From contig NZ_FZTC01000017.1 of NCBI RefSeq assembly GCF_900200035.1, positions 1-64,000 of the forward strand: a stretch of 64,000 bases of DNA, in the 5' to 3' direction. The translations under genes were made by a program, and so were the position numbers. The notes beneath the pieces were generated by a model. It had not been told where the DNA came from and searched no databases. It saw nothing but the letters and a program-made list of their open reading frames with translations. This document shows positions 49,029 to 60,547 of this stretch, in pieces (position 1 is the first letter of the stretch; the number at the start of each line of letters is the position of its first letter). This stretch comes from Klebsiella grimontii. Its GTDB lineage: Bacteria; Pseudomonadota; Gammaproteobacteria; Enterobacterales; Enterobacteriaceae.

Positions 49029-50231
49029 CTACTCAAGAAAAGCGTAAATCATCAGTAGCCAGAGTAGGGCGCCGACGATAATTATCATTTTCAGAAGGAC
49101 ATTGCTGGCCGGGAAAATATATACCGGCGGTAGGGCGGAACGCCTGGCATTAATGAGTAAATAAGGCGGCAATAATATACTCCATAGCACCAGTGAAATG
49201 CCGGCAAAGGCCAGAGCAGATAAAAATCCTTGCGGGGCGAAAATACAGGCCAGGGCGGGAGGGAAATAGGTCAGAAATATTGCCAGCGGACGCGATCCCC
49301 GGCGGCTGATTTTATTCAGTATATCCTCAAGATAATCACTCAAGCCGATTGAGGCCGACATCAGTGAGGCTAAAACGGCAATACACCCAAAGGAGACCAG
49401 CGTCATACGGGTCGCCGAGGTGGTCTGGTGGATATTAAGGGCGGTAATAAAGGCCCCGATGTTCCCGCCCTGGTCGCTGACATGCTGGATCGCCTGAGGC
49501 GTGAGTGCGCCCATGGTCAGCGTCAGCCAGAAGGCGTAGACGATCAGCGAAACCGCAAAGCCGTAATAGAGAGAGCGGGTAACCGCGCGATGATTATCCC
49601 GTCTGTACATTCTGCTCAGGGAGGGCACGCTGCCATGAAAGCCAAAAGCGATAATACAGACCGGCACGATCGGCAGGTAATACCCGAGCGGCGTGCTGGC
49701 GGAGATGTCGAACAATCTGAGCGGCTTTACGCCACCCGCGGCACCGGCGAACAGCAGAAAAAACAGGGTGAACTTGGCGGCGATAAGGCCTGAAAGGATA
49801 TAGCCGGGTAATCTGCCGCCTGCCCACAGGATCGCCGAGGTCGTCAGCGACAGCAGAATTATCGGCAGCCAGCTGCGGTCCCTGGCAGCGGGCGGTAAGA
49901 GATCGCGTAATATTGACGCGGCGCCTGAGATGTACGCGTAGGTCAGTAGGTAGAGCACAAAGCAGAAGGCTATCCCGATGATAACGCTAGCGGCGGGGCC
50001 GAGCAGCGCGTTGGTGAAAGTATGAAAGCTGGCGCCGGGAGGAAATCGCATCGTGATGTCAACGAGGATTAGCCCCGTCATCAGCATCAATATGCCCGTC
50101 GCCGACAGGATCAGCAGGCCTTTTAAAAACCATACGTGGACGAACGCGATCGGCAACGCGAACATGCCGCCGCCGATAATGGTCGCCACCATGAGAGACG
50201 TTCCGCGCAGAGGGAACCCTGTTCCTTTCAT
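49029..50231 (-). CDS. HAAAP-family (aromatic/hydroxy) amino-acid permease
   Basis: 400 aa, 11 hydrophobic segments. 'GTSLMVATIIGGGMFALPIAF' (about 9-29) and 'GFHGSVPSLSRMYRRD' (about 197-212) are hallmarks of the Mtr/TnaB/TyrP/SdaC group. It is the last gene of the leftward AOS-exporter cluster, 50 bp after the synthase, so it may supply the amino acid used by that enzyme. Confidence 0.87.
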   Translation of the reverse strand: MKGTGFPLRGTSLMVATIIGGGMFALPIAFVHVWFLKGLLILSATGILMLMTGLILVDITMRFPPGASFHTFTNALLGPAASVIIGIAFCFVLYLLTYAYISGAASILRDLLPPAARDRSWLPIILLSLTTSAILWAGGRLPGYILSGLIAAKFTLFFLLFAGAAGGVKPLRLFDISASTPLGYYLPIVPVCIIAFGFHGSVPSLSRMYRRDNHRAVTRSLYYGFAVSLIVYAFWLTLTMGALTPQAIQHVSDQGGNIGAFITALNIHQTTSATRMTLVSFGCIAVLASLMSASIGLSDYLEDILNKISRRGSRPLAIFLTYFPPALACIFAPQGFLSALAFAGISLVLWSILLPPYLLINARRSALPPVYIFPASNVLLKMIIIVGALLWLLMIYAFLE

Positions 50232-50281
50232 ATGAATGAGTGTCCGTAAGCGGCCTGACGAAGCAGGCCGGCAGCAGCTAT

Positions 50282-51511
50282 TTATCTCGTGGCTTCAGCC
50301 AGTGACTCTCTGAAGTTTCGATAGAAGTCGTCGATTTGCCCGCTCTCGTGGAGAGCAGACAACGCGCAGCGCAAAATGGCGTGCCCTTCTTCAACGGTCG
50401 GATACATCGCCACGGTCGTCGCGAAGCCGCGATCGTGCAGCTTTTTGCACATCGTGATGGCGAGATCTTCGTTACCAATCAGGATCCCCCGAATCGGCAT
50501 CGTGGTGCCCCGGTTAACGATTTCGGTCTTGCCGAAAACTTCGTCAAAATAGCGAATAACGTTCTGTAGCTTCTCCTGGCGGGCGGCGACGGTGCCGTCC
50601 AGGTGGAGGTCGGCGGCGGCTACGCAGGCGGCAATCCCTGGTAATGACGGCGGTCCGCCAAAGGCGTAGGTTGTGCCGTAGGTCTTAATAAAATTGATGG
50701 TCTCTGCGGCGTGACAGGCGATAAATCCGCCGTGCGAGCCAAATGCTTTAGACAGCGATCCGGCGATAATAATACGCTCGTCAAGCCGATGGCCTAGGCA
50801 TGCCATCACATATCCCGAACCGTAGTCGCCGTAGATAGAGGTGCCATGCGCATCGTCTATATATGCGTAGCCGTCATACTGATGCGCCAGGCGGACAATC
50901 TGCGCGACCGGGGCGACTCCGCCCATGGAGCCTACGCTGTCTGATACCGAGATCGGCGTCAGTCCCTGGCTGGCGGCATAGCGAAAGGCCTCTTCGATCC
51001 GCGCCGTATCCTGGAAATCAATTCTGACGACGTCCCCGAACTGCTGTAAAAGACCACGGTTGATTTGCAGCGTCGCGTGGGCGGTCTTCTCCATAATAAA
51101 ATAGGGTTTTTTACTGAACGTAAAATGCGGCAGCGTTCCGGACGCCAGCAGCGGTAATACCGCGATATGGCAGGGCGTCACCGCGTTAAACGTCAGGGTA
51201 TGAGCTCCATGCATGATTTGGTTCAGTCGCGCTTCCAGCTGCGGGAACAGATCGACTTTTACCCGCGTTCTGGCGACGGAAACCTGCACGCCAAAACGCT
51301 CAATCGCGTCGATAACCGCTTTTTTCAGCGTCGGATGAGTCTCCAGCCCAAGATAGGAACATGAGACAAATTCCACCATTTTTCTGCCATCGTCGAGGGT
51401 AATGACCTTGCCATCCCTTTTGGCTACCACCAGTTCATTAATATGTTCAGAGAACACCCTGGTTTGATATTTTAGCGATCTATCTATTTTCCTTTTTTGC
51501 CAGTTTTCCAT
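50282..51511 (-). CDS. Alpha-oxoamine synthase-family PLP enzyme
   Basis: 409 aa. 'FVSCSYLGLETHP' (about 48), 'YIDDAHGTSIYGDYGSG' (about 217; Asp219, His222) and PLP Lys255 in 'AGSLSKAFGSHGG' define the AOS family (BioF, KBL, ALAS, SPT, CqsA), which condense an amino acid with an acyl thioester, losing CO2, to give an alpha-aminoketone. Not BioF or Kbl by context: no biotin or tdh genes, instead an amino-acid permease, two exporters and a diiron oxidase. In Vibrio, CqsA makes the CAI-1 signal by this chemistry. The start overlaps the upstream MFS gene by 28 bp and has AAGG 7 bases before it. Confidence 0.87.
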   Translation of the reverse strand: MENWQKRKIDRSLKYQTRVFSEHINELVVAKRDGKVITLDDGRKMVEFVSCSYLGLETHPTLKKAVIDAIERFGVQVSVARTRVKVDLFPQLEARLNQIMHGAHTLTFNAVTPCHIAVLPLLASGTLPHFTFSKKPYFIMEKTAHATLQINRGLLQQFGDVVRIDFQDTARIEEAFRYAASQGLTPISVSDSVGSMGGVAPVAQIVRLAHQYDGYAYIDDAHGTSIYGDYGSGYVMACLGHRLDERIIIAGSLSKAFGSHGGFIACHAAETINFIKTYGTTYAFGGPPSLPGIAACVAAADLHLDGTVAARQEKLQNVIRYFDEVFGKTEIVNRGTTMPIRGILIGNEDLAITMCKKLHDRGFATTVAMYPTVEEGHAILRCALSALHESGQIDDFYRNFRESLAEATR

Positions 51512-52623
51512 TGCGTTACCTTCATTGTCGTGACTACCAGAAGAGATAAAATTGCCAGCGTTAACGTGCTCGTGCCGAGGGTTCTGTCAAACCCCAGGCC
51601 GGTATCCGTGAGTTTTACAGCGAAATAGCTGATGGCGCCGGCGCAGACTGTTTGAATAAAACCGGTGACTGATGCCGCAATACCGGTTTTAGTACCTTTG
51701 ATTTGCAGTGCGATAAAGTTGGCGGTCGGGTAATAGGCGCCAAGGCTGAAATTAAAAATCATCGATCCAGCGATGCATAATATGAGTGAGTGGCAACCGA
51801 TAATAAATGGAGAGACCGCCAGCGCATTCATGATAAACAAAATCCAGGGATTATTTATGCGCTCAAATTTTGAGAACTGATTGCCAATAATAAAAAATAA
51901 AACGGAAGCGGAAAACAGCAGTGAGTAGTGCATTGTGCTCAGCCCAAGCTGCTGCATAAAAATGGCTGGCGACAGCGAGATATAGCAAAACAGCGAACTC
52001 AGGATCAGTGAAACCAGAAGTGTTCCCTGGATAAATGCCGGCGTGATAAACCCGGAAGAAGAGGGCGCCGCAGCGCTATCGCGATGCCCAAGGCGGCGCG
52101 GAGACAGCAGGAGGGTAACGACGCTAAACAGGGCCATAACGAGGAAGATATGGTTCCAGCTCAAATGGCCGAGGATCGCGGCGCCGGCCAGCGGTGCAAT
52201 AAGCGGAACCACCGCGCTGGCGGAAGAAATATCGGAAAGGGCGCGCTTGAGCGTCAGAGGAGAAAAAGTCTCTTTGGCGATGGCTTTAGACAGAACCGGT
52301 CCTGCCCCGGCGCCCACGGCCTGTAATGCCCTACCGGCCAACAGCATTGATAAACTATCGGAAATAAAACAGAGGAGGCTCCCTGCCAGGAAAAGCAAAA
52401 AGCTGGCCGTCAGCACGCGTAATTTACCCAGTTTTTCGCCGATAAACCCTGATAATAATTGGCTACAGGCGTATATCACCAGAAAACCGCTAATGGTTAA
52501 CTGAATAGATGAATAATCGCTGTGGAACGCTTTTTGTAACAGGGGCAGCGCCGGCACGATCATATCTGTTGCCAGCGCGGAAACCGATGCGGCGAGAATA
52601 AGGTATAAGTATATCCTGAGCAT
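51484..52623 (-). CDS. Bcr/CflA-type MFS exporter
   Basis: 379 aa, 12 TM, slightly short. 'ATDMIVPALPLLQKAFHSDYSSIQLTISGFL' region (about 18-48) is the typical Bcr/CflA opening, and 'GRALQAVGAGAGPVLSKAIAKE' region (about 97-118) the motif C zone. Between the DMT exporter and the synthase, so probably exports the cluster's product or confers self-protection. Confidence 0.88.
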   Translation of the reverse strand: MLRIYLYLILAASVSALATDMIVPALPLLQKAFHSDYSSIQLTISGFLVIYACSQLLSGFIGEKLGKLRVLTASFLLFLAGSLLCFISDSLSMLLAGRALQAVGAGAGPVLSKAIAKETFSPLTLKRALSDISSASAVVPLIAPLAGAAILGHLSWNHIFLVMALFSVVTLLLSPRRLGHRDSAAAPSSSGFITPAFIQGTLLVSLILSSLFCYISLSPAIFMQQLGLSTMHYSLLFSASVLFFIIGNQFSKFERINNPWILFIMNALAVSPFIIGCHSLILCIAGSMIFNFSLGAYYPTANFIALQIKGTKTGIAASVTGFIQTVCAGAISYFAVKLTDTGLGFDRTLGTSTLTLAILSLLVVTTMKVTQWKTGKKGK

Positions 52624-52670
52624 GTTAAACTCTTCGGTTAATATGGATTACAATGTGGCGTTATTATTAA

Positions 52671-53570
52671 TTAATGCGCCGCTGTTTTTTTAGCGAGTGA
52701 ACAAATCGCGATCCCGGTCAAAATTAGCAGCGTGCTCAGTAAGTGATAGAGGTGCGGCTGGGTGTGTAAAAACAGAATGCTTAATATGCCGCCAGACAGC
52801 GGAATAATATGGGTATAAATTTCCCCGCGAGTGGCGCCAATGGCCGCGATGCCTTTATTCCAGAATAAGTAGGCCAGCCACGAGGGGAAAATAACCAGGT
52901 ACGCCAGTCCGGTCAGGAAAGAGATATCGTGGTACGAAGCGAATGAGGTAGCGGGGTGCCGCCACAGCCAGAAAATCACCACCGGAAGCAGAATAAGGGC
53001 GCCGAGAAGCGAACTGACGGCGACGAAAGCGTTGGCGGGGATACGACGATCTTTGTTACGTAACAGAGAGCAATATACCGCCCAGCTTAGTGCGGACCCC
53101 ATTGCCCACAGATCTCCCTGGCTGAAGCCTTTTAGCCCCTCTGCGCTGGTCAGGTTGCCGTGCAGAAGCAGCAGCAGGACGCCTGCGGTGCTAAAGAGCA
53201 CTCCCCACCAGTTACGCGCCGACACCCGGTCACGGAAAATCAGCCGATTAATAATAAGCACCATGCAGGGGGTCGCAGACATGTAAATCGCTGCGTTCAG
53301 CGCCGAAGTCGACTGCAGGCCAATATAGAGAGTTAAGGGAAAACTTACCTGCCCGCACAGCGTTAAGATCAGCAGCGTTGGCGCATTTTGGCGAAACAGC
53401 AGCCGACTGTCGCGGATTTGCCGCTGATAGAGCAATACCAACAGTATCGCGGTCAACGCCCATCTCGCTTCGGTCATCAGGATCGGGTCCGCGCCCTGAA
53501 CGAGAATATGCCCTACGACATAATTCCCTCCCCAAAACAGGGCCGCCAGCGTGAGTAACAGGTAAGGCAT
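52671..53570 (-). CDS. EamA/DMT-family transporter
   Basis: 299 aa from ATG 53570 (AAGGA six bases upstream; 53585 is an alternative). Ten helices in two EamA repeats (about 5-135 and 150-295), with 'ALFWGGNYVVGHILV' and 'TLLILTGIAI'. DMT exporters such as RhtA, YdcZ-like or PecM-like proteins release amino acids and metabolites. First gene of the leftward group; divergent from the diiron oxidase across 213 bp of very AT-rich DNA. Confidence 0.88.
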   Translation of the reverse strand: MPYLLLTLAALFWGGNYVVGHILVQGADPILMTEARWALTAILLVLLYQRQIRDSRLLFRQNAPTLLILTLCGQVSFPLTLYIGLQSTSALNAAIYMSATPCMVLIINRLIFRDRVSARNWWGVLFSTAGVLLLLLHGNLTSAEGLKGFSQGDLWAMGSALSWAVYCSLLRNKDRRIPANAFVAVSSLLGALILLPVVIFWLWRHPATSFASYHDISFLTGLAYLVIFPSWLAYLFWNKGIAAIGATRGEIYTHIIPLSGGILSILFLHTQPHLYHLLSTLLILTGIAICSLAKKTAAH

Positions 53571-53783
53571 GCTGATTCCTTGCATCGCTTCGAACTGTAC
53601 TAAATGGTAACTTTATTTTTTTTAATATATCAATTAAATTTTATTGTTATTTTGGGTTTTTGCTATTTTTTATTTAAAAAACAAATAATTAAAACTTTGT
53701 TACGCATGTGCAAAAAATCTGATTGCAGCATATATATCTGTACGATAACGTATCTATACCATGCTTTATACAGGGATAAATCG

Positions 53784-54875
53784 ATGCGTAAGACAGAAAA
53801 TGGTTTCACCGGGAACGAACCGCATTCCGCAATGGCCAGGCTCTCTCTGGATGACATGATTGATCAGCTTCTCCACAGCAACGCGCTTTCACTAAAACTT
53901 ACGGCTAATCCGCTACTGGCCGACAGAGTCTGGTACCTGACTGAAAACACCTGCATCAAGGCTTTTACCGCCAACGACCCGCAGGCTAAAAAGCGTGCCC
54001 ACGGCGCGCTGTTTAAACTGTACCAGGCTTGGCTGGCGGAGCCGCTATCGGCGGCGGCAAAAAACCAGTTCCATCCCTTGCTCTGCGGGATCAGAAGCTA
54101 CATCGAGACAGAATGGCTTCGGGTGGAAAAAAAACGGTTCGCTTTCCCGGCACCTGCGCTTAACGCCGGCAATATCGTTGAGGAACTTCGTGACCTCTGT
54201 CAGAAACACCCGGCCTCGCACCATCCTCTGTTTGATTTTCTCGCTTCTTCCGCTTCCGCTACGCAAATCGACTATTTCTTCAAAAGCGATAGCGCGCTGA
54301 ATCTGCTGTTTTTCGATCTGGTGGCAATGGGGCTGGTCGGTTCTCTGCCGGAAACGCGCGCAGAGATTGCCCAGAATCTCTGGGATGAAATAGGCCAGGG
54401 CAGCCAGGAGATCACGCACGTTAATCTGTATAAGGATTTACTGAAGCGAAGGGATATTGCGTTGCCTGAAAATCATTTCGCCCATCTGTACGACTGGCAG
54501 GGACTCGCTGGCTACAATGCGTTTATGTTGGGCGGCGTTAACCGTCAGCATTACTACAAATCGCTTGGCGTCATGGCGATGACGGAACTGTTGGATCCGC
54601 CGCAGTACCAGAAGCTGGTGACAGGTTGCCGCCGTATTGGGCTATCGGATCGCGACGTCCATTATTACTCAGAGCATATCGAGGTTGATATCGGCCACGC
54701 GGATGGATGGCTGAATAACGTTATCGTGCCGATCGGCAATAAAAATCCGGCTGCGCTGGAAGAGGTCTACTCTGGCGCAGCGCTGCGTCTTCAGACTTGC
54801 TGCGATTATTACGATTGTCTGCTGGAGGCGTTACGCACGCTCGCTGACCGCGAATCAGAGAGTACCGCCCTCTGA
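53784..54875 (+). CDS. Haem-oxygenase-like diiron oxidase (HDO / iron-containing redox enzyme)
   Basis: 363 aa from ATG 53784, with CAGGGA 7 bases upstream; the longer frame from 53604 is unsupported. The C-terminal ~200 residues carry the HDO ligand set: Glu202 (LWDEIGQG), His212 (EITHVNL), Glu268 (MAMTELLDPP), then His298, Asp302 and His305 (SEHIEVDIGHADG). HDO relatives include UndA, BesC and SznF, which perform oxidative C-C cleavage or N-oxygenation on fatty acids and amino-acid derivatives. Divergent from the exporter/synthase genes and convergent with the TetR, it likely modifies the synthase substrate or product. Confidence 0.85.
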   Translation: MRKTENGFTGNEPHSAMARLSLDDMIDQLLHSNALSLKLTANPLLADRVWYLTENTCIKAFTANDPQAKKRAHGALFKLYQAWLAEPLSAAAKNQFHPLLCGIRSYIETEWLRVEKKRFAFPAPALNAGNIVEELRDLCQKHPASHHPLFDFLASSASATQIDYFFKSDSALNLLFFDLVAMGLVGSLPETRAEIAQNLWDEIGQGSQEITHVNLYKDLLKRRDIALPENHFAHLYDWQGLAGYNAFMLGGVNRQHYYKSLGVMAMTELLDPPQYQKLVTGCRRIGLSDRDVHYYSEHIEVDIGHADGWLNNVIVPIGNKNPAALEEVYSGAALRLQTCCDYYDCLLEALRTLADRESESTAL

Positions 54876-55433
54876 ATAAATAAGCGCTTTTGCCGCGCTC
54901 CAGGCCGTTATACCGGGAGGGATCTCCCGGCATTCCGATGACTCGGCCTGTTGGGCGGCAATCGCGCCATCAATCAGCATAAGCATCATCATCGCCACCC
55001 GTTCCGCAGGCTCTGGTTTTAATAGTCCGATGAGGATGTCGCGGAAAAACTTGTAGAGGCGCGATTTAAACTGTGAACATATCGTCCGGATAGCGGGAGA
55101 CGAGGTCCCGTATTCAAACAGGGCGCGGGTGAACATGCAGCCGTGAAAATCCGCACAGGTGAACCAGTTATTGTAGTATTCAAAGACGGCAAACAGCTTT
55201 TCACGCCCCGTGGGTTTATCCGCGGTAATGTCCTGCAGCGCCTGCATAAAATCACACTCTTTCTGCTGTAAAATATCAAGAATGAGCGCCTCTTTATCCG
55301 GATAGTAGCGGTAGAACGTCATTTTGGAGATGCCCGCATTCTCCGAAATCCGGTCAATACTCGGCGACTGATACCCCTCTTTGTTAAACAGGGACATAGA
55401 ATGGCGGATAATTTCCGCTTGTTTTGGCTTCAT
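54855..55433 (-). CDS. TetR-family regulator of the AOS-HDO cluster
   Basis: 192 aa from ATG 55433 (GGGAAAC upstream); the 47 extra upstream codons lack TetR character. HTH 'SIDRISENAGISKMTFYRYYPDKEALILDIL' region (about 24-54), then a ligand domain with 'FHGCMFTRALFEYG', a pattern of fatty-acid/small-acid sensing TetR proteins. Its 3' end overlaps the oxidase gene by 21 bp, convergent. Confidence 0.83.
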   Translation of the reverse strand: MKPKQAEIIRHSMSLFNKEGYQSPSIDRISENAGISKMTFYRYYPDKEALILDILQQKECDFMQALQDITADKPTGREKLFAVFEYYNNWFTCADFHGCMFTRALFEYGTSSPAIRTICSQFKSRLYKFFRDILIGLLKPEPAERVAMMMLMLIDGAIAAQQAESSECREIPPGITAWSAAKALIYSEGGTL

Positions 55434-55867: not shown

Positions 55868-55888
55868 CTATCTCTGCGGGTTTTTTTT
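55862..55888 (+). terminator. Orphan terminator overlapping the class IV aminotransferase end
   Basis: CCCGC (55862-55866), 9-nt loop, GCGGG (55876-55880), TTTTTTTT. Faces right, yet no + strand gene leads into it; the last six codons of the leftward gene are made from this sequence. Confidence 0.8.
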
Positions 55889-56836
55889 CGTCCAGCGATT
55901 GTCGGCGGGCGGCGACTCCTCCTGCTGTAAATAGTCCTGATACCAGCCGCTGATGCGTTGGGTCACGGGATTTTCGTTGAGGTCGAAGCGCCTGCCGTCG
56001 AGCCTGCTTACCGGGGTAATACCTGCCAGCGTTCCGGTGACAAAAGCTTCGTCCGCAGTGAATGCTTCGGCAAGGGTAAAGGATCTTTCCTGTACGCCGA
56101 GGCCCTGCTGGCGCGCCAGTGACAAGATCGTGCGGCGGGTAATACCGTTAAAGCAGTACAGGCCGTTTGAGGTCCACAGCTCGCCCTGGCGTATGATAAA
56201 AAAGTTGGTGGAATTGCAACTGGCGACAAAACCATGAGGGTCCAGCATCAGCGCTTCATCTGCGCCGGCATCCAGCGCCTGCAATAGCGCCTGAATCAAA
56301 TTCAGGCGGCTGTGGGAATTAAGACGCAAATCGAAAACATCCGGCGCGCTGGTACGATAGGTCGAGGTGAACAGGGCAAGGCCGCGCCGTTTGGCTTGTT
56401 CATCAACAACCTTATATTCCGCCACGCAGACGATAGTGGCGCCGCCGAGGATAAAGCGCGGGTCCTGATTTGGCGTGCGCTTTTTGCCGCGGGTGATCAT
56501 GAGCCGCAGATGGGCGCCGTCCGTCATACCGTTGATCTTCAGCGTGTTGTACATAATATCGGTTAGCTCCTCAGGACTATGGCCGATATTGAGCTGGATA
56601 GCGGCTGCCCCGGCAAACAGGCGATCGAGATGCGCCTGAAGGGCGATCAGCTTGCCGTTTACCAGCCGCAGCCCCTCCCAGACCCCGTCGCCGCAGACGT
56701 AGCCGGAATCGAAAACGGAAACCGTGGCGCGATCGCGATGAACGAATTCGCCGTTGACGTACACTTGCACATTGTCGTTGCGCGTATCCTGCAGGTACGC
56801 CTGACTGCTTTGACCGGAGAGAGCTAAACTCATCAT
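55868..56836 (-). CDS. Class IV aminotransferase-fold protein with altered PLP site
   Basis: 322 aa. Fold type IV features: 'VFDSGYVCGDGVWEGLRLVNGK' region (about 41-62) and 'GADEALMLDPHGFV' (about 191-204), as in IlvE, Dat and PabC. By anchoring on the 'RLN' after it, the PLP lysine position is Asn173, with Arg177 the only nearby basic residue, and the usual Glu before 'sNfF' is Ser206. Activity as an aminotransferase is therefore in doubt. Cotranscribed 12 bp after the ABC ATPase gene. The C-terminus runs into a terminator sequence and may be shifted. Confidence 0.8.
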   Translation of the reverse strand: MMSLALSGQSSQAYLQDTRNDNVQVYVNGEFVHRDRATVSVFDSGYVCGDGVWEGLRLVNGKLIALQAHLDRLFAGAAAIQLNIGHSPEELTDIMYNTLKINGMTDGAHLRLMITRGKKRTPNQDPRFILGGATIVCVAEYKVVDEQAKRRGLALFTSTYRTSAPDVFDLRLNSHSRLNLIQALLQALDAGADEALMLDPHGFVASCNSTNFFIIRQGELWTSNGLYCFNGITRRTILSLARQQGLGVQERSFTLAEAFTADEAFVTGTLAGITPVSRLDGRRFDLNENPVTQRISGWYQDYLQQEESPPADNRWTKKNPQR

Positions 56837-56848
56837 GTTTCCTTGCGG

Positions 56849-57628
56849 TTAAAATGCCCGTTCAGCGAAACGGGAAAGGAAGGCCTGGGTGCGCGGTTGG
56901 CGCGGATGGCGCAGCACCTCTTCCGCGGTGCCCATTTCATGAATCACGCCGTTTTCGATAAAAATCACCCGATCGGCGAAATGCCAGGCAAAGCCCAGCT
57001 CATGAGTGACCAGCAGCAGCGTCCGTCCCTCATCTGCCAGTTCACGGATGGTATGCAGGACTTCCCCCACGAGTTCAGGGTCGAGGGACGAGGTGGGCTC
57101 ATCGAACAATATTATCTCTGGCGTCATTGCCAGGGCGCGAGCAATCGCGACGCGCTGCTGTTGACCGCCGGACAGGCTGCCGGGCCAGGCCTGATGCTTA
57201 TGGCCGAGCCCCACTTTTTCCAGCTGCGCGCGGGCAATGCGCATCGCCTCTTCGCGACGCATCTTTTTCACCGATATCAGGGCTTCGCTGACATTTTGCA
57301 GTACCGTCAGATGCGGGAAGAGATTAAATTGCTGAAACACCATCCCCACGCGCTGGCGAACATCGCTCAGCTGTTTTTCGCTATAGCGCCGCTGACCGCG
57401 GCTGTCGATTTTACCGAGGGTAACGCCGTCCAGTTCTACGGTGCCAGCGCTGGGTATTTCCATAAAGTTCAGACAGCGCAGCAGGGTGCTCTTACCCGAG
57501 CCGCTGCCGCCAATGATGGCGATTTTCTCACCGGCATAGATATCTAAATCGATGCCCTGTAACACGCTTTGCGCACCAAAGCGTTTGTACAGGGCGCGTA
57601 TCCGCATGACGACTTTTTTCTCTGACAT
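56849..57628 (-). CDS. Polar amino-acid ABC transporter ATPase (second system)
   Basis: 259 aa from ATG 57628; ATG 57640 is an alternative. Walker A GGSGSGKST (about 36), signature LSGGQQQR (about 146), Walker B IILFDEPTSSLDPE, His switch 'LLVTHELGFA'. GlnQ family. Works with the two following permeases. Confidence 0.93.
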   Translation of the reverse strand: MSEKKVVMRIRALYKRFGAQSVLQGIDLDIYAGEKIAIIGGSGSGKSTLLRCLNFMEIPSAGTVELDGVTLGKIDSRGQRRYSEKQLSDVRQRVGMVFQQFNLFPHLTVLQNVSEALISVKKMRREEAMRIARAQLEKVGLGHKHQAWPGSLSGGQQQRVAIARALAMTPEIILFDEPTSSLDPELVGEVLHTIRELADEGRTLLLVTHELGFAWHFADRVIFIENGVIHEMGTAEEVLRHPRQPRTQAFLSRFAERAF

Positions 57629-57644
57629 GGCCTTTCTCATCAAA

Positions 57645-58310
57645 TTAAGGATGTGGACGGTAGCGGCGCTCCAGTCGTGCCGCCAGGTAACTTCCGGGCC
57701 AGATCAGCACAAAATAGAGCAGGGCGACGACGGTGAAAATCTCCACCGGGCGATACCAGGTACTGCTTAGCAGCCTGCCCTGATACATCAGTTCATTAAC
57801 CGTGAGAATCGAGGCCAGGGAGGTCACCTTCGCCAGTTCAATCATGCGGTTTGTCAGGGCTGGCAGCATACGGCGAAATACCTGCGGCAGGATGATGCGC
57901 CGTAGCATCACGCCCGGCGGCATGCCTAAGGCTTTTGCCCCTTCCCACTGTCCGCGTTCGATGGACTGTAGCCCGGCGCGAAAAATTTCGGTGCTGTAGG
58001 CGGCGGTGTATAGGGTTAACGCCAGCGCGGCGGCGCCAAAAGTGGAAAACTGAATGCCCACCAGCACCGGAAAGGCATAGTAGAACCAGATGAGCTGGAT
58101 AAGCACCGGCGTATTGCGGAACACCTCGACAAAGGCGCTGGTAAGGGGATAAAAAAAGCGCGGCCCGCGGGCACGGACGACGCCAACGGCAAGTCCGAGC
58201 AGCGTGCCGACAATTCCCGCCAGCAGCCATAGCTCCAGCGTAACGCCCAGTCCCTTCAGCAGTACCGGCAAGTTTTGCCAGACAAGGGAAAAGTCCCACT
58301 GATAATGCAT
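57645..58310 (-). CDS. Amino-acid ABC permease (second system, B)
   Basis: 221 aa from ATG 58310. Begins MHYQWDFSLVW, almost the same as its neighbour's MSYQWDFAAIW, showing origin by duplication. EAA loop 'IFRAGLQSIERGQWEGAKALGMPPGVMLRRIILPQVFR' region. HisM/GltJ type. Confidence 0.92.
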   Translation of the reverse strand: MHYQWDFSLVWQNLPVLLKGLGVTLELWLLAGIVGTLLGLAVGVVRARGPRFFYPLTSAFVEVFRNTPVLIQLIWFYYAFPVLVGIQFSTFGAAALALTLYTAAYSTEIFRAGLQSIERGQWEGAKALGMPPGVMLRRIILPQVFRRMLPALTNRMIELAKVTSLASILTVNELMYQGRLLSSTWYRPVEIFTVVALLYFVLIWPGSYLAARLERRYRPHP

Positions 58311-58323
58311 GGTTGTTCTCTCG

Positions 58324-58995
58324 TTAACGTGTGTCGGAGACGGCAAGGCGTCGTTCAAGCAGCCGGCTGCCCTGGCTGATAATCAGCAGCAGGGTGAAGT
58401 ACATCACCGCGATGAGCGAATACACTTCCAGGGGCCGGTAAGTCTGACTGTTGATTTGCATCGCCTGATACAGCAGCTCGCTGTATGCCAGAGACGAAGC
58501 AAGGGCGGTGGATTTGAGCAGTTCGAAAGAACGCTCAAGGAAAGGAGGAATCATGCTGCGCAGCGCCTGAGGGAAAATAACCCGTCGGAGCGCGGTGGCG
58601 CGCGACATGCCCAACGCCTTCGCCCCTTCCCATTGTCCGGCGCCGATCGACTGGATGCCGCCGCGGTAAACTTCGGCATAAAACGCGGCCGACTGGGCGG
58701 AGAGCGCCAGTACAGCGGCAGCGAACGGCGAGAGCGTCAGCGGGCTGACGATTGGCAGAGCGTAGTAGATCCAGAAGAAGTGGACAATCGCGGGAGTATT
58801 ACGATAAAAGCCGATCAGTATCAGCGCCGGCATACGGAAGAGCGTTAGCGGCGAGGCCTTCATCAACGCCAGCGCAATGCCGGCCAGCATGCCGAATAAA
58901 ATACTGGTGACGCCGATCTGAATGGTACCCCACAGCCCCTCCAGCAACAGCATGCGATATGGCCAGATGGCGGCAAAATCCCATTGATACGACAT
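58324..58995 (-). CDS. Amino-acid ABC permease (second system, A)
   Basis: 223 aa, about five helices, EAA loop 'VYRGGIQSIGAGQWEGAKALGMSRATALRRVIFPQALR' region. Paralogue of the next gene; a heterodimeric GltJK-like channel is expected. First gene of the leftward unit, divergent from the MmgE/PrpD gene. Confidence 0.92.
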   Translation of the reverse strand: MSYQWDFAAIWPYRMLLLEGLWGTIQIGVTSILFGMLAGIALALMKASPLTLFRMPALILIGFYRNTPAIVHFFWIYYALPIVSPLTLSPFAAAVLALSAQSAAFYAEVYRGGIQSIGAGQWEGAKALGMSRATALRRVIFPQALRSMIPPFLERSFELLKSTALASSLAYSELLYQAMQINSQTYRPLEVYSLIAVMYFTLLLIISQGSRLLERRLAVSDTR

Positions 58996-59137
58996 AGTTC
59001 TGGAACCCCTGAAAAACGCAAAACGATGGTGATGGTTTTAGAACGACATCATCTTAGCAGTAGCGAAATGTGATAATTAAATAATAAAAACCATTGCTAT
59101 TATCTCTTTTGGTTATAAATATTTACGCGAGAAAGCA

Positions 59138-60547
59138 ATGCCAAACTTTGATTCTTTAACCGCTACGCTGGCGCGTTTTGCCGGCGAACTCACTCCGGCT
59201 GCGATACCGGCGTCGGTGAAAGCCAGGATCGCTCTGCATTTTATCGATAGCCTGGGCTGCGGCATTGCCGGCGGCGAAGACAGCGTGCTGCGTAAAAGCG
59301 CGCGGGTTATTCGGAGCCAGTACGCGACGGGCAGAAGCGTGGCGCTTGACGGTGGAACTCCGCTCTCCGCCAGCGGCGCCGCGTTCCTTAACGCCGCTGC
59401 GATAAACGCGCTGGATTATGACGATGGTTTTGAAGTCGCCGGGCGGGGGATGGGGCATCCCGGCGCCACGCTGGTGGCCGGGGCGCTGGCCGCGGTGGGC
59501 CAGGGTGGGCCGGTCAGCGGCGGGGCGTTGCTGACCTCTCTGGTGGCGGCCTGGGAAATCAACAGCCGCGTGATTATCTCTCAGCAGCCGAGTCCTGAAA
59601 GGTTTCAACAAGTGTATGGCGTGTGCCAGCACGAATCGCTGGGGGCGGCGGTGGCGTATGGTTTACTGCGCGGCTGCGATGCCGCGGGGCTGGAAAATAG
59701 CCTGGGACTGGCCGCCTCGTTAACCCCTTTGCCCACGTTGCATAAGTACAACTGGCAGGCGCGTCCACTGGTTTCGTTTAAGGATTACAATGCGCCGGCG
59801 GCAGAGGCCGGCGTACGCGCGGTGGAGCTACACCTCGCGGGAATAGTGGGGCCGCGCGCGATACTCGATGGCGAACAGGGGTTCTGGCGGATGTCAGGCT
59901 CCGACCGCTTTCAGCCAGAACGGCTGACAGAGAATCTGGCGACGCACTGGCAGCTCAGGCACGCCAGTTTCAAAGACTATCCGGTATGCCGTTGGATGCA
60001 TACGGCGCTGGCGTCGTTTGAGCATCTGCTGGAGCGTATTCCGTCGGCAGAGTCGATTGAGCGGATACGCGTCTATGGGAGTTTCACCCTGGCGCGTTTT
60101 TTCGCCGACGCGCGTCCCGTCAGCAATACCGATGCGCAGTTCAGTCTGCTGCTGGCGATAGCCTGCCTGGCTTTTAAAATCGCGCGTCATCAGTGGAGCA
60201 GCGATCGGACGCGCGGCGCGGCGCCACTCCTTGCCTTTGCTGACCGGGTTGAAATTATCGCCGATGAGACCTTTGAACAGCTGATGCTGCAGCATCGCCG
60301 TCCCGCCGCGCGCGTGGAAATTGTGCTAAAGGGAAGGACGATCGCCGGAGAGCGTATCGACTTCCCGCCGGGGTGCGCAGAAAATCCGCTGCCGGAACAG
60401 CGGATCGTTGATAAATGCGTGGCCAACCTGTCATCACGCCTCAGCGCTCCGCGGGCAGCGCGGCTGATTGACGCTCTGCTGGATATGGAACGCTGCGCGG
60501 ACATTGGCGCGGCAATCGCGCCGCTTCTGCCCGCGCCAGGAGATTAA
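59138..60547 (+). CDS. MmgE/PrpD-family protein
   Basis: 469 aa. All-helical N-terminal domain with 'LHFIDSLGCGIAGGEDS' (about 29-45) and 'NALDYDDGFE' (about 88-97), and 'GHPGATLVAGALA'; C-terminal lid from about 280. The family includes 2-methylcitrate dehydratase PrpD, cis-aconitate decarboxylase and iminodisuccinate epimerase-like enzymes. No prp genes are present; in an amino-acid importer locus, an epimerase or hydro-lyase acting on an amino/dicarboxylic acid is more likely. Set between the permeases and the binding protein, convergent with the latter (4-bp gap). Confidence 0.87.
   Translation: MPNFDSLTATLARFAGELTPAAIPASVKARIALHFIDSLGCGIAGGEDSVLRKSARVIRSQYATGRSVALDGGTPLSASGAAFLNAAAINALDYDDGFEVAGRGMGHPGATLVAGALAAVGQGGPVSGGALLTSLVAAWEINSRVIISQQPSPERFQQVYGVCQHESLGAAVAYGLLRGCDAAGLENSLGLAASLTPLPTLHKYNWQARPLVSFKDYNAPAAEAGVRAVELHLAGIVGPRAILDGEQGFWRMSGSDRFQPERLTENLATHWQLRHASFKDYPVCRWMHTALASFEHLLERIPSAESIERIRVYGSFTLARFFADARPVSNTDAQFSLLLAIACLAFKIARHQWSSDRTRGAAPLLAFADRVEIIADETFEQLMLQHRRPAARVEIVLKGRTIAGERIDFPPGCAENPLPEQRIVDKCVANLSSRLSAPRAARLIDALLDMERCADIGAAIAPLLPAPGD

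What the first reader, a model, noticed from the sequence alone, without database searches (positions are those of the whole stretch)
49029..55433. Compact AOS-HDO cluster: probable undescribed metabolite or signal pathway
An alpha-oxoamine synthase (Lys255 intact) and a diiron HDO (full E/H/E/H/D/H ligand set) are combined with an amino-acid permease, MFS and DMT exporters and a TetR. AOS chemistry gives alpha-aminoketones (as CqsA makes CAI-1); HDOs oxidise amino-acid or fatty-acid derivatives. Every transport and control function for a self-contained small-molecule pathway is present, and I know of no such cluster in Enterobacteriaceae.
Basis: partly seen in the sequence, partly recalled or inferred. 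Interest (0 to 1): 0.85.

Follow-up and report, generated by a model that had tools for sequence, protein, structure and literature searches.

The report
Two small-molecule make-and-export gene units
What looked like one pathway is two separable gene units standing side by side in a Klebsiella-type genome, each an enzyme that probably makes an unusual amino-acid-like compound plus a pump, and one of them also travels on small plasmids, some of which keep only the pump, as if it were an immunity gene.

Summary
In detail: six genes at 49029-55433 encode a permease, an intact alpha-oxoamine synthase (AOS), an MFS pump, a DMT pump, a diiron HDO and a TetR. A single AOS-to-HDO pathway is poorly supported. 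Comparison splits the block into TetR-HDO-DMT and MFS-AOS-(permease), each found without the other. In four sampled Klebsiella-type loci without adjacent HDO, DMT is decayed. Where AOS was lost, MFS stayed open in 4-5 events and decayed in one; I found no intact AOS of this clade without MFS. E. coli carries MFS-AOS on a 6.7-kb plasmid; 5.7-kb and 3.8-kb plasmids keep MFS with AOS deleted, an orphan-immunity pattern. The AOS is not KBL, BioF or CqsA-type: it falls in the curated subfamily PRK07505 with Alb29, an L-glutamate-using AOS, and shares three arginines missing from KBL and BioF. The HDO's nearest solved relative is the lysine N-oxygenase HrmI. Best reading: two secreted amino-acid-like antimetabolite units, the AOS one like a tiny chemical colicin. 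Substrates, products, toxicity and targets are inferred, not shown. Refuted if AOS does not use L-glutamate, or AOS-MFS in E. coli K-12 inhibits nothing.

The parts
49029..50231 (-). PERM: aromatic/hydroxy amino-acid permease family (PF03222), last gene of the AOS operon
   Evidence: TIGR00837 278 bits vs cut-off 350, so not a clear Mtr/TnaB/TyrP orthologue; absent from the E. coli-type plasmid version
50282..51511 (-). AOS: PLP alpha-oxoamine synthase of subfamily NF005697/PRK07505 (Alb29 group), K255; predicted to use L-glutamate
   Evidence: third AOS of the genome besides KBL and BioF
51484..52623 (-). MFS: Bcr/CflA-like pump overlapping AOS by 28 bp; proposed exporter/self-protection for the AOS product
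   Evidence: open where AOS is lost in G008, G018, Brenneria and small E. coli/Salmonella plasmids
52671..53585 (-). DMT (EamA) exporter, partner of the HDO; first gene of the minus-strand operon
   Evidence: relatives beside other HDOs; decayed in four sampled AOS loci without adjacent HDO
53586..53783 (.). Divergent AT-rich promoter region between DMT and HDO
   Evidence: its DMT-side part is kept upstream of MFS-AOS on Klebsiella plasmids; no operator shared with the TetR promoter found
53784..54875 (+). HDO: heme-oxygenase-like diiron enzyme, HrmI/BelK-like; probable start 53784 (listed ORF starts 53604)
54855..55433 (-). TetR regulator convergent with HDO; relatives (33-47% identity) stand next to four more distant HDOs

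Best explanation
Two neighbouring make-and-export units. Unit A (MFS-AOS, with a permease in Klebsiella and Winslowiella): the AOS condenses an acidic amino acid, most likely L-glutamate, with an acyl-CoA, losing CO2, to give a 4-amino-5-oxo acid; the MFS pump exports it and protects the producer; outside, it acts as an antimetabolite on competitors. [quoted passage not shown] Shown by sequence: the genes, intact catalytic residues, subfamily membership, separability, coupled retention and loss, purifying selection. Inferred: substrates, products, direction of transport, toxicity, regulation.
For: Separability: DMT-HDO-TetR without AOS in G013, G015, G019 and CP125156, HDO-DMT on Salmonella and Rahnella plasmids; MFS-AOS without HDO beside it on Klebsiella and E. 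coli plasmids. Coupling: of 34 plasmid records of this clade whose AOS is covered over 95% or more (33) or split at the record start (1), 34 also hold MFS (reading frames not checked one by one). AOS is lost with MFS open in G008, G018, Brenneria and E. coli/Salmonella 5654- and 3838-bp plasmids; DMT is decayed in four sampled AOS loci without adjacent HDO. MFS dN/dS 0.15-0.16 between AOS-bearing and AOS-less relatives. A 6676-bp plasmid holds MFS-AOS, a replication gene, mobQ and one hypothetical gene. Chemistry: the Alb29 fragment scores 445 on NF005697 (cut-off 342), the window AOS 478; R81, R83 and R341 are in 8 of 8 aligned members and Alb29, absent in own KBL and BioF; Alb29 is reported to use L-Glu (passages, PMC10230504, PMC11906848). 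HDO: HrmI E 1e-34, next BesC 1e-6; fold Z 22.9-23.8 against 18.3 for the next family. Precedent: the aminoketone alpha-methyl-KAPA is a BioA inhibitor active on E. coli (passages, PMC13336041).
Against: No assay. Orphan pumps can be kept for other drugs. On plasmid CP048109 MFS and AOS are both decayed. All 4 genus genomes with intact AOS have an HDO (one only 53% identical), against 6 of 16 others, one of these broken (by hand p about 0.04, ignoring relatedness), which hints at some tie, and in the window AOS shares an operon with DMT. The E. coli and Winslowiella loci show no trace of DMT, so an ancestral DMT-MFS-AOS operon is shown only for the Klebsiella/Brenneria part. HrmI is only 29% identical over 290 aligned residues, so lysine is a guess. 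The AOS model was poor (pLDDT 60): the arginines could not be placed, and by fold Alb29 ties with BioF enzymes (Z 31.7 against 31.9). No TetR sits beside the HDO in the Salmonella, Rahnella and G001 loci. The p5654 and p3838 deletions share a junction region and may be one event or two.
Confidence: 0.5

Rival explanations
1. One pathway: the AOS makes an alpha-aminoketone whose amine the HDO then oxidises, and the pumps export it.
For: AOS and HDO adjacent in 3 of 20 genus genomes and within about 25 kb in G001 and on CP044049; DMT-MFS-AOS-PERM operon layout; HrmI-type N-oxygenases act on amines (PMC13108848, section 8).
Against: Each enzyme is kept with its own pump without the other in many places; DMT is decayed where HDO is not adjacent although AOS persists.
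Confidence: 0.15
2. A cell-cell signal of the CAI-1 or pyrazine kind made by the AOS.
For: AOS chemistry gives alpha-aminoketones; aminoketone-derived signals are known (recalled; PMC11480411 on Klebsiella pyrazines seen as a search listing only).
Against: No receptor or sensor kinase gene travels with the unit in the loci listed; CqsA-type model 58 vs 428 bits; small plasmids and pump-only derivatives fit immunity better than signalling.
Confidence: 0.08
3. HDO is a BesC-like C-C lyase (lysine to an allylglycine-type amino acid), not an N-oxygenase.
For: BesC is the second-best sequence match (1.1e-6); plasmid relatives pair the HDO with a putative Fe/2OG halogenase and LysE, recalling the BesD-BesC pair (recalled).
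Against: HrmI is far closer over full length (1e-34; Z 23.8 vs 14.1); BesC model NF042919 32 bits vs cut-off 500.
Confidence: 0.15
4. The AOS product is a private metabolite (for example metal binding or nutrient related) and MFS is a general drug pump kept for its own sake.
For: MFS is Bcr/CflA-like; efflux pumps are often retained.
Against: In the plasmid and E. coli searches MFS of this clade was found only beside AOS or AOS remnants.
Confidence: 0.2

Closest known systems
Alb29, alpha-oxoamine synthase of albogrisin biosynthesis (Streptomyces albogriseolus; PDB 8XHA, 8I7U)
   Same: Nearest solved sequence (5e-34); same curated subfamily NF005697; shared R81/R83/R341 pattern.
   Different: 22-25% identical in the fold alignment; Alb29 is reported from the albogrisin pathway (PMC11906848, passage), here there are one or two partner genes.
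HrmI/BelK L-lysine N-oxygenases (hormaomycin, belactosin; PDB 9N1X)
   Same: Nearest by sequence and fold over nearly the full length, six ligands aligned; HrmI is described as 3H/3C (PMC13108848, section 4).
   Different: 29% identity; none of the six genes of the block is a BelL/HrmJ-type cyclopropanase, NRPS or ATP-grasp ligase.
Historical amino-acid microcins of gut Enterobacteriaceae (microcin 15m and others)
   Same: Small secreted amino-acid-like inhibitors of enterobacteria (passages, PMC6795089, PMC12162799).
   Different: Microcin 15m is described as a methionine-pathway (homoserine trans-succinylase) inhibitor; a glutamate-derived ketone would not obviously mimic methionine; the passages I read name no genes, so a link is only a lead.
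alpha-methyl-KAPA (mkp cluster, Streptomyces)
   Same: Aminoketone of the BioF product type acting as an antimetabolite (passages, PMC13336041).
   Different: Made by a cluster mkpA-G with fatty-acid-type enzymes; targets BioA.

Membership tests
alpha-oxoamine synthase superfamily | Catalytic Lys, D-D-A-H motif, PLP-stacking His, carboxylate Arg (roles recalled) | tested here: met
   K255, D219-D220-A221-H222 and H145 invariant in 10 of 10; R381 aligned in 11 of 11 including own KBL, own BioF and Alb29
NF005697/PRK07505 (Alb29 group) | Score above the curated cut-off of 342 bits | tested here: met
   478 bits; Alb29 fragment of 357 aa 445
NF005697/PRK07505 (Alb29 group) | Use of L-glutamate plus acyl-CoA (reported for Alb29) | not testable with these tools
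   inferred from subfamily and R81/R83/R341
KBL / BioF | Curated equivalog cut-offs | tested here: not met
   TIGR01822 118 vs 493, NF005394 145 vs 460, TIGR00858 174 vs 426
CqsA-type autoinducer synthase | NF005526 cut-off 428 bits | tested here: not met
   58 bits
HDO superfamily (3H/3C) | Six ligands E/H/E/H/D/H on a heme-oxygenase-like fold | tested here: met
HrmI/BelK lysine N-oxygenase | Nearest solved relative by sequence and fold | tested here: met
   HrmI is also nearest for relatives L036 and L057
HrmI/BelK lysine N-oxygenase | Oxidises the lysine side-chain amine to nitro | not testable with these tools
   needs assay
BesC | NF042919 cut-off 500 bits | tested here: not met
   32 bits
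Bcr/CflA efflux pump | TIGR00710 cut-off 200.9 bits | tested here: not met
   129 bits window, 177 bits E. coli plasmid copy
Bacteriocin-like producer/immunity pair | Producer found with its partner in the records examined; partner-only derivatives circulate | tested here: met
   one plasmid has both decayed
Bacteriocin-like producer/immunity pair | Growth inhibition and protection | not testable with these tools
   needs a plate test

The most novel reading that the evidence does not exclude
MFS-AOS is a two-gene chemical colicin of gut enterobacteria: one PLP enzyme turns L-glutamate and acetyl-CoA (or another acyl-CoA) into a 4-amino-5-oxo acid, a ketone mimic of glutamate-1-semialdehyde that could block haem synthesis at HemL, and one pump gives immunity; plasmids that have shed the enzyme and kept only the pump circulate as orphan immunity in E. 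coli and Salmonella. It could be the genetic basis of one of the old non-ribosomal amino-acid microcins.
Probability: 0.25. Interest if true: 0.88.

Novelty: new variant of a known kind. Interest (0 to 1): 0.68.

Why it matters
If right, a single enzyme plus a single pump is enough to arm a bacterium with a diffusible amino-acid-like weapon, small enough to ride on a 6.7-kb plasmid in E. coli. It would assign a role in enterobacteria to a curated family still called hypothetical protein (PRK07505), give a possible genetic handle on the historical amino-acid microcins, and supply a natural experiment (pump-only plasmids) for competition without ribosomal bacteriocins. The HDO unit would add a lysine-type N-oxygenase with a pump as a minimal exported nitro or hydroxylamino amino-acid pathway. 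Both are directly testable in E. coli K-12.

Tried and rejected
One AOS-HDO pathway: tested by synteny and by which genes decay together; not favoured. KBL, BioF, CqsA-type identity of the AOS: tested, not met. Anti-phage defence: AOS, HDO and MFS have no PADLOC match. TetR operator: no palindrome or stretch shared between the DMT-HDO gap and the TetR promoter in six genomes, apart from one A-rich 9-mer in G012. Foreign composition: GC of the block (0.48-0.57) does not differ clearly from its flanks. Phage carriage: one distant AOS (32%) in IMG/VR. Paraburkholderia 2OG enzyme near its HDO as a BelL: rejected, it is TqaL-like (3.5e-98). The window cluster has no megablast match in the 20,395 E. 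coli records. Literature: among the rows listed by searches I saw no paper on this AOS, HDO or cluster in Enterobacteriaceae; several lists were cut at 20 rows and only open-access papers are held, so this is weak evidence of absence. Of papers I saw outlines or passages, plus sections 4 and 8 of PMC13108848 and sections 5 and 7 of PMC13185094; Zhang et al. 2024 on Alb29 I saw only as a reference in PMC11906848.

Rows set aside before counting: AOS hits at 26-27% identity in genus genomes (two such hits in the window genome are its KBL and BioF); 128 of 162 plasmid AOS records, those below 60% identity (the call's counts are led by Rhizobium, Sinorhizobium and Agrobacterium), of which I looked at three; of 45 plasmid HDO records I looked at eight. 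Of 162 and 45 records only 40 and 30 rows were listed.
Full report
OBSERVATION. The six genes are real, in the order PERM-AOS-MFS-DMT (minus strand), HDO (plus), TetR (minus). MFS and AOS overlap by 28 bp, AOS-PERM and DMT-MFS gaps are 50 and 47 bp, so DMT-MFS-AOS-PERM looks like one operon; HDO is divergent from DMT across an AT-rich gap and converges on TetR. The HDO and TetR ORFs as listed are probably too long at their 5' ends; conserved starts are near 53784 and 55433. Pairwise dN/dS is 0.05-0.14 for all six genes wherever dS was not saturated.

WHERE IT OCCURS. The window genome shares its genus with genomes whose contig lengths equal those of Klebsiella michiganensis DSM 25444 and Raoultella terrigena NBRC 14941. 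In 20 genus genomes full-length AOS of this clade is in 4 and HDO in 10, one of these in two broken pieces. AOS and HDO stand together in 3: G000, G009 and G012, the last with most of the permease missing. Outside the genus they are rare: in 394 genomes of the order, AOS in 1 (the window's own) and HDO in 2 (own and G415); the curated AOS family is over its cut-off in 3 of 274 genomes of the class, own included, and in 0 of 14 control genomes.

TWO UNITS. Unit B (DMT-HDO-TetR) stands without AOS in G013, G015, G019 and a K. pneumoniae record. HDO-DMT pairs occur on Salmonella and Rahnella plasmids. A TetR relative (33-47% identity) sits next to the HDO in K. aerogenes, K. variicola, Paraburkholderia and G415, but not in the Salmonella, Rahnella and G001 loci. 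Unit A (MFS-AOS-PERM) stands without adjacent HDO on Klebsiella plasmids at about 95% AOS identity, in G001 and in Winslowiella; MFS-AOS without permease is on E. coli plasmids at 76%. Among the rows listed (40 of 162 AOS and 30 of 45 HDO plasmid records) one record holds both enzymes, about 18 kb apart (CP044049); in G001 they are about 24 kb apart, with a 53%-identical HDO.

WHICH GENES STAY TOGETHER. On three sampled Klebsiella-type plasmids and in G001 the promoter and 5' part of DMT remain upstream of MFS, but the rest of DMT is decayed, and HDO is not adjacent (L022, L061, L054, L034). Brenneria keeps 137 bp of it. So those MFS-AOS loci probably descend from a DMT-MFS-AOS operon, and DMT decayed where its HDO was gone. 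The E. coli and Winslowiella loci show no DMT trace. Conversely AOS has been lost with MFS still open in G008 (a 1.36-kb gap relative to R. terrigena), G018 (AOS residues 6-86 left), Brenneria (AOS residues 1-38 left) and E. coli/Salmonella small plasmids. MFS dN/dS across AOS-bearing and AOS-less relatives is 0.15-0.16, but these branches include time before the loss. On K. michiganensis plasmid CP048109 both are decayed. Of 34 plasmid records of this clade whose AOS is covered over 95% or more (33) or split at the record start (1), 34 hold MFS too. In the records and genomes examined I found no intact AOS of the clade without MFS; the more distant AOSs (44% identity and below) that I looked at have no such MFS beside them.

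THE SMALL PLASMIDS. In 5426 complete E. coli genomes the E. coli-type MFS is in 12, all on plasmids; 9 have the whole pair and 3 are 5654-bp plasmids, of which the one I compared has an internal AOS deletion. A 6676-bp plasmid carries a replication gene, MFS, AOS, mobQ and one hypothetical gene. A 3838-bp plasmid is listed for two E. coli and one Salmonella record; the two I opened carry rep, rop and MFS only. Its MFS is closer to the intact pair's MFS (1072 of 1119 bases) than to that of the 5654-bp plasmid (1048 of 1119), so the two deletions may be separate, although their junctions lie in nearly the same place. On the three larger plasmids with the E. coli-type pair that I opened it lies beside colicin K genes. 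This is the anatomy of a producer/immunity pair with orphan immunity. That the product inhibits growth is inferred.

THE AOS. It scores 478 bits on NF005697 (cut-off 342) and fails the curated cut-offs of BioF, KBL, ALAS, SPT and the CqsA type. The genome has true KBL and BioF elsewhere. Its nearest solved sequence is Alb29 (5e-34; the E. coli plasmid copy likewise), and the Alb29 fragment itself scores 445 bits on NF005697. Alb29 is reported to work with L-glutamate as its one amino acid and several acyl-CoAs, giving seven aminoketones (passages, PMC10230504, PMC11906848). Three arginines, R81, R83 and R341, are in all 8 aligned subfamily members and Alb29 but not in own KBL or BioF; R81 and R83 lie two and four residues after the position (ThAOS Val79, matched here through KBL, BioF and Alb29) that a recent paper links to amino-acid choice (PMC11906848, passages). 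I infer that they hold the side-chain carboxylate of glutamate. With acetyl-CoA the product would be 4-amino-5-oxohexanoate, a methyl-ketone analogue of glutamate-1-semialdehyde; HemL as target is a guess from chemistry. The AOS model was poor (pLDDT 60), and in the fold comparison Alb29 (Z 31.7) ties with BioF (31.9) and other AOS families.

THE HDO. All six ligands are kept. HrmI is the nearest solved protein by sequence (1e-34; BesC 1e-6) and by fold (Z 22.9-23.8, rmsd 4.8-5.2 over 308-317 residues; FlcD 18.3; RohS 14.3; BesC 14.1; model pLDDT 75). It is also nearest for the relatives in K. aerogenes and Paraburkholderia. HrmI and BelK oxidise the lysine side-chain amine to nitro, HrmI through N6-hydroxylysine (PMC13108848, section 8). 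Partner genes of relatives fit amino-acid chemistry: LysE-type and DMT pumps, and on Klebsiella plasmids a putative Fe/2OG halogenase. Identity to HrmI is 29%, so lysine is the first guess and not a result.

VERDICT. Observation confirmed; the single-pathway reading is weakened, not excluded; the AOS is an enterobacterial member of the Alb29 group, and MFS-AOS is best read as a mobile antimetabolite producer/immunity pair. Nothing here has been assayed.

Noticed in passing
L036 7971-10710 and L039/L054 (K. aerogenes pC9_001, K. variicola CP044049): TetR-HDO-(303-aa protein)-LysE: the K. aerogenes 303-aa protein, annotated hypothetical, matches the Fe/2OG halogenases BtnX (4e-78) and CurA (8e-23) with an H-x-G motif aligned (meaning of the motif recalled). 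A possible halogenated amino-acid pathway on conjugative plasmids of clinical isolates.
   Followed up: partly
L073 6627-10882 (G415): TetR-HDO followed by a 2-aminoethylphosphonate-aminotransferase-like enzyme (267 bits, cut-off 361) and an NTP-transferase-like protein: a phosphonate-like context for an HDO 47% identical to the window's.
   Followed up: partly
L058, L059 (Leptolyngbya and Nostoc plasmids): More distant HDO relatives (28-30% identity) each directly follow an annotated NACHT NTPase gene.
   Followed up: no
L024, L060 (Enterobacter ludwigii and E. coli IMI-2 plasmids): A 44%-identical AOS sits beside an asparagine-synthase gene; on the second plasmid the asparagine synthase is annotated as a C-terminal piece and the AOS ORF is shortened.
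   Followed up: no
L054 8054-12299 (K. variicola CP044049): A cluster with an L-tyrosine/L-tryptophan isonitrile synthase lies between the HDO and AOS units.
   Followed up: no
window 55868-60547: Class-IV aminotransferase, then genes that look like an ABC amino-acid transporter and an MmgE/PrpD-type enzyme (labels recalled, not scanned); found beside the K. michiganensis cluster, where the aminotransferase matches only over residues 252-322, but not beside the R. terrigena cluster.
   Followed up: no
CP125156.1 (PLSDB): A 5.37-Mb record listed as a plasmid appears to be a chromosome.
   Followed up: no
L070 1820-4892, L071 1174-3274 (G534, G508): Distant members of the AOS family stand beside CitE/RipC-like lyase genes (below those models' cut-offs) in two genomes of other families of the class.
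   Followed up: no
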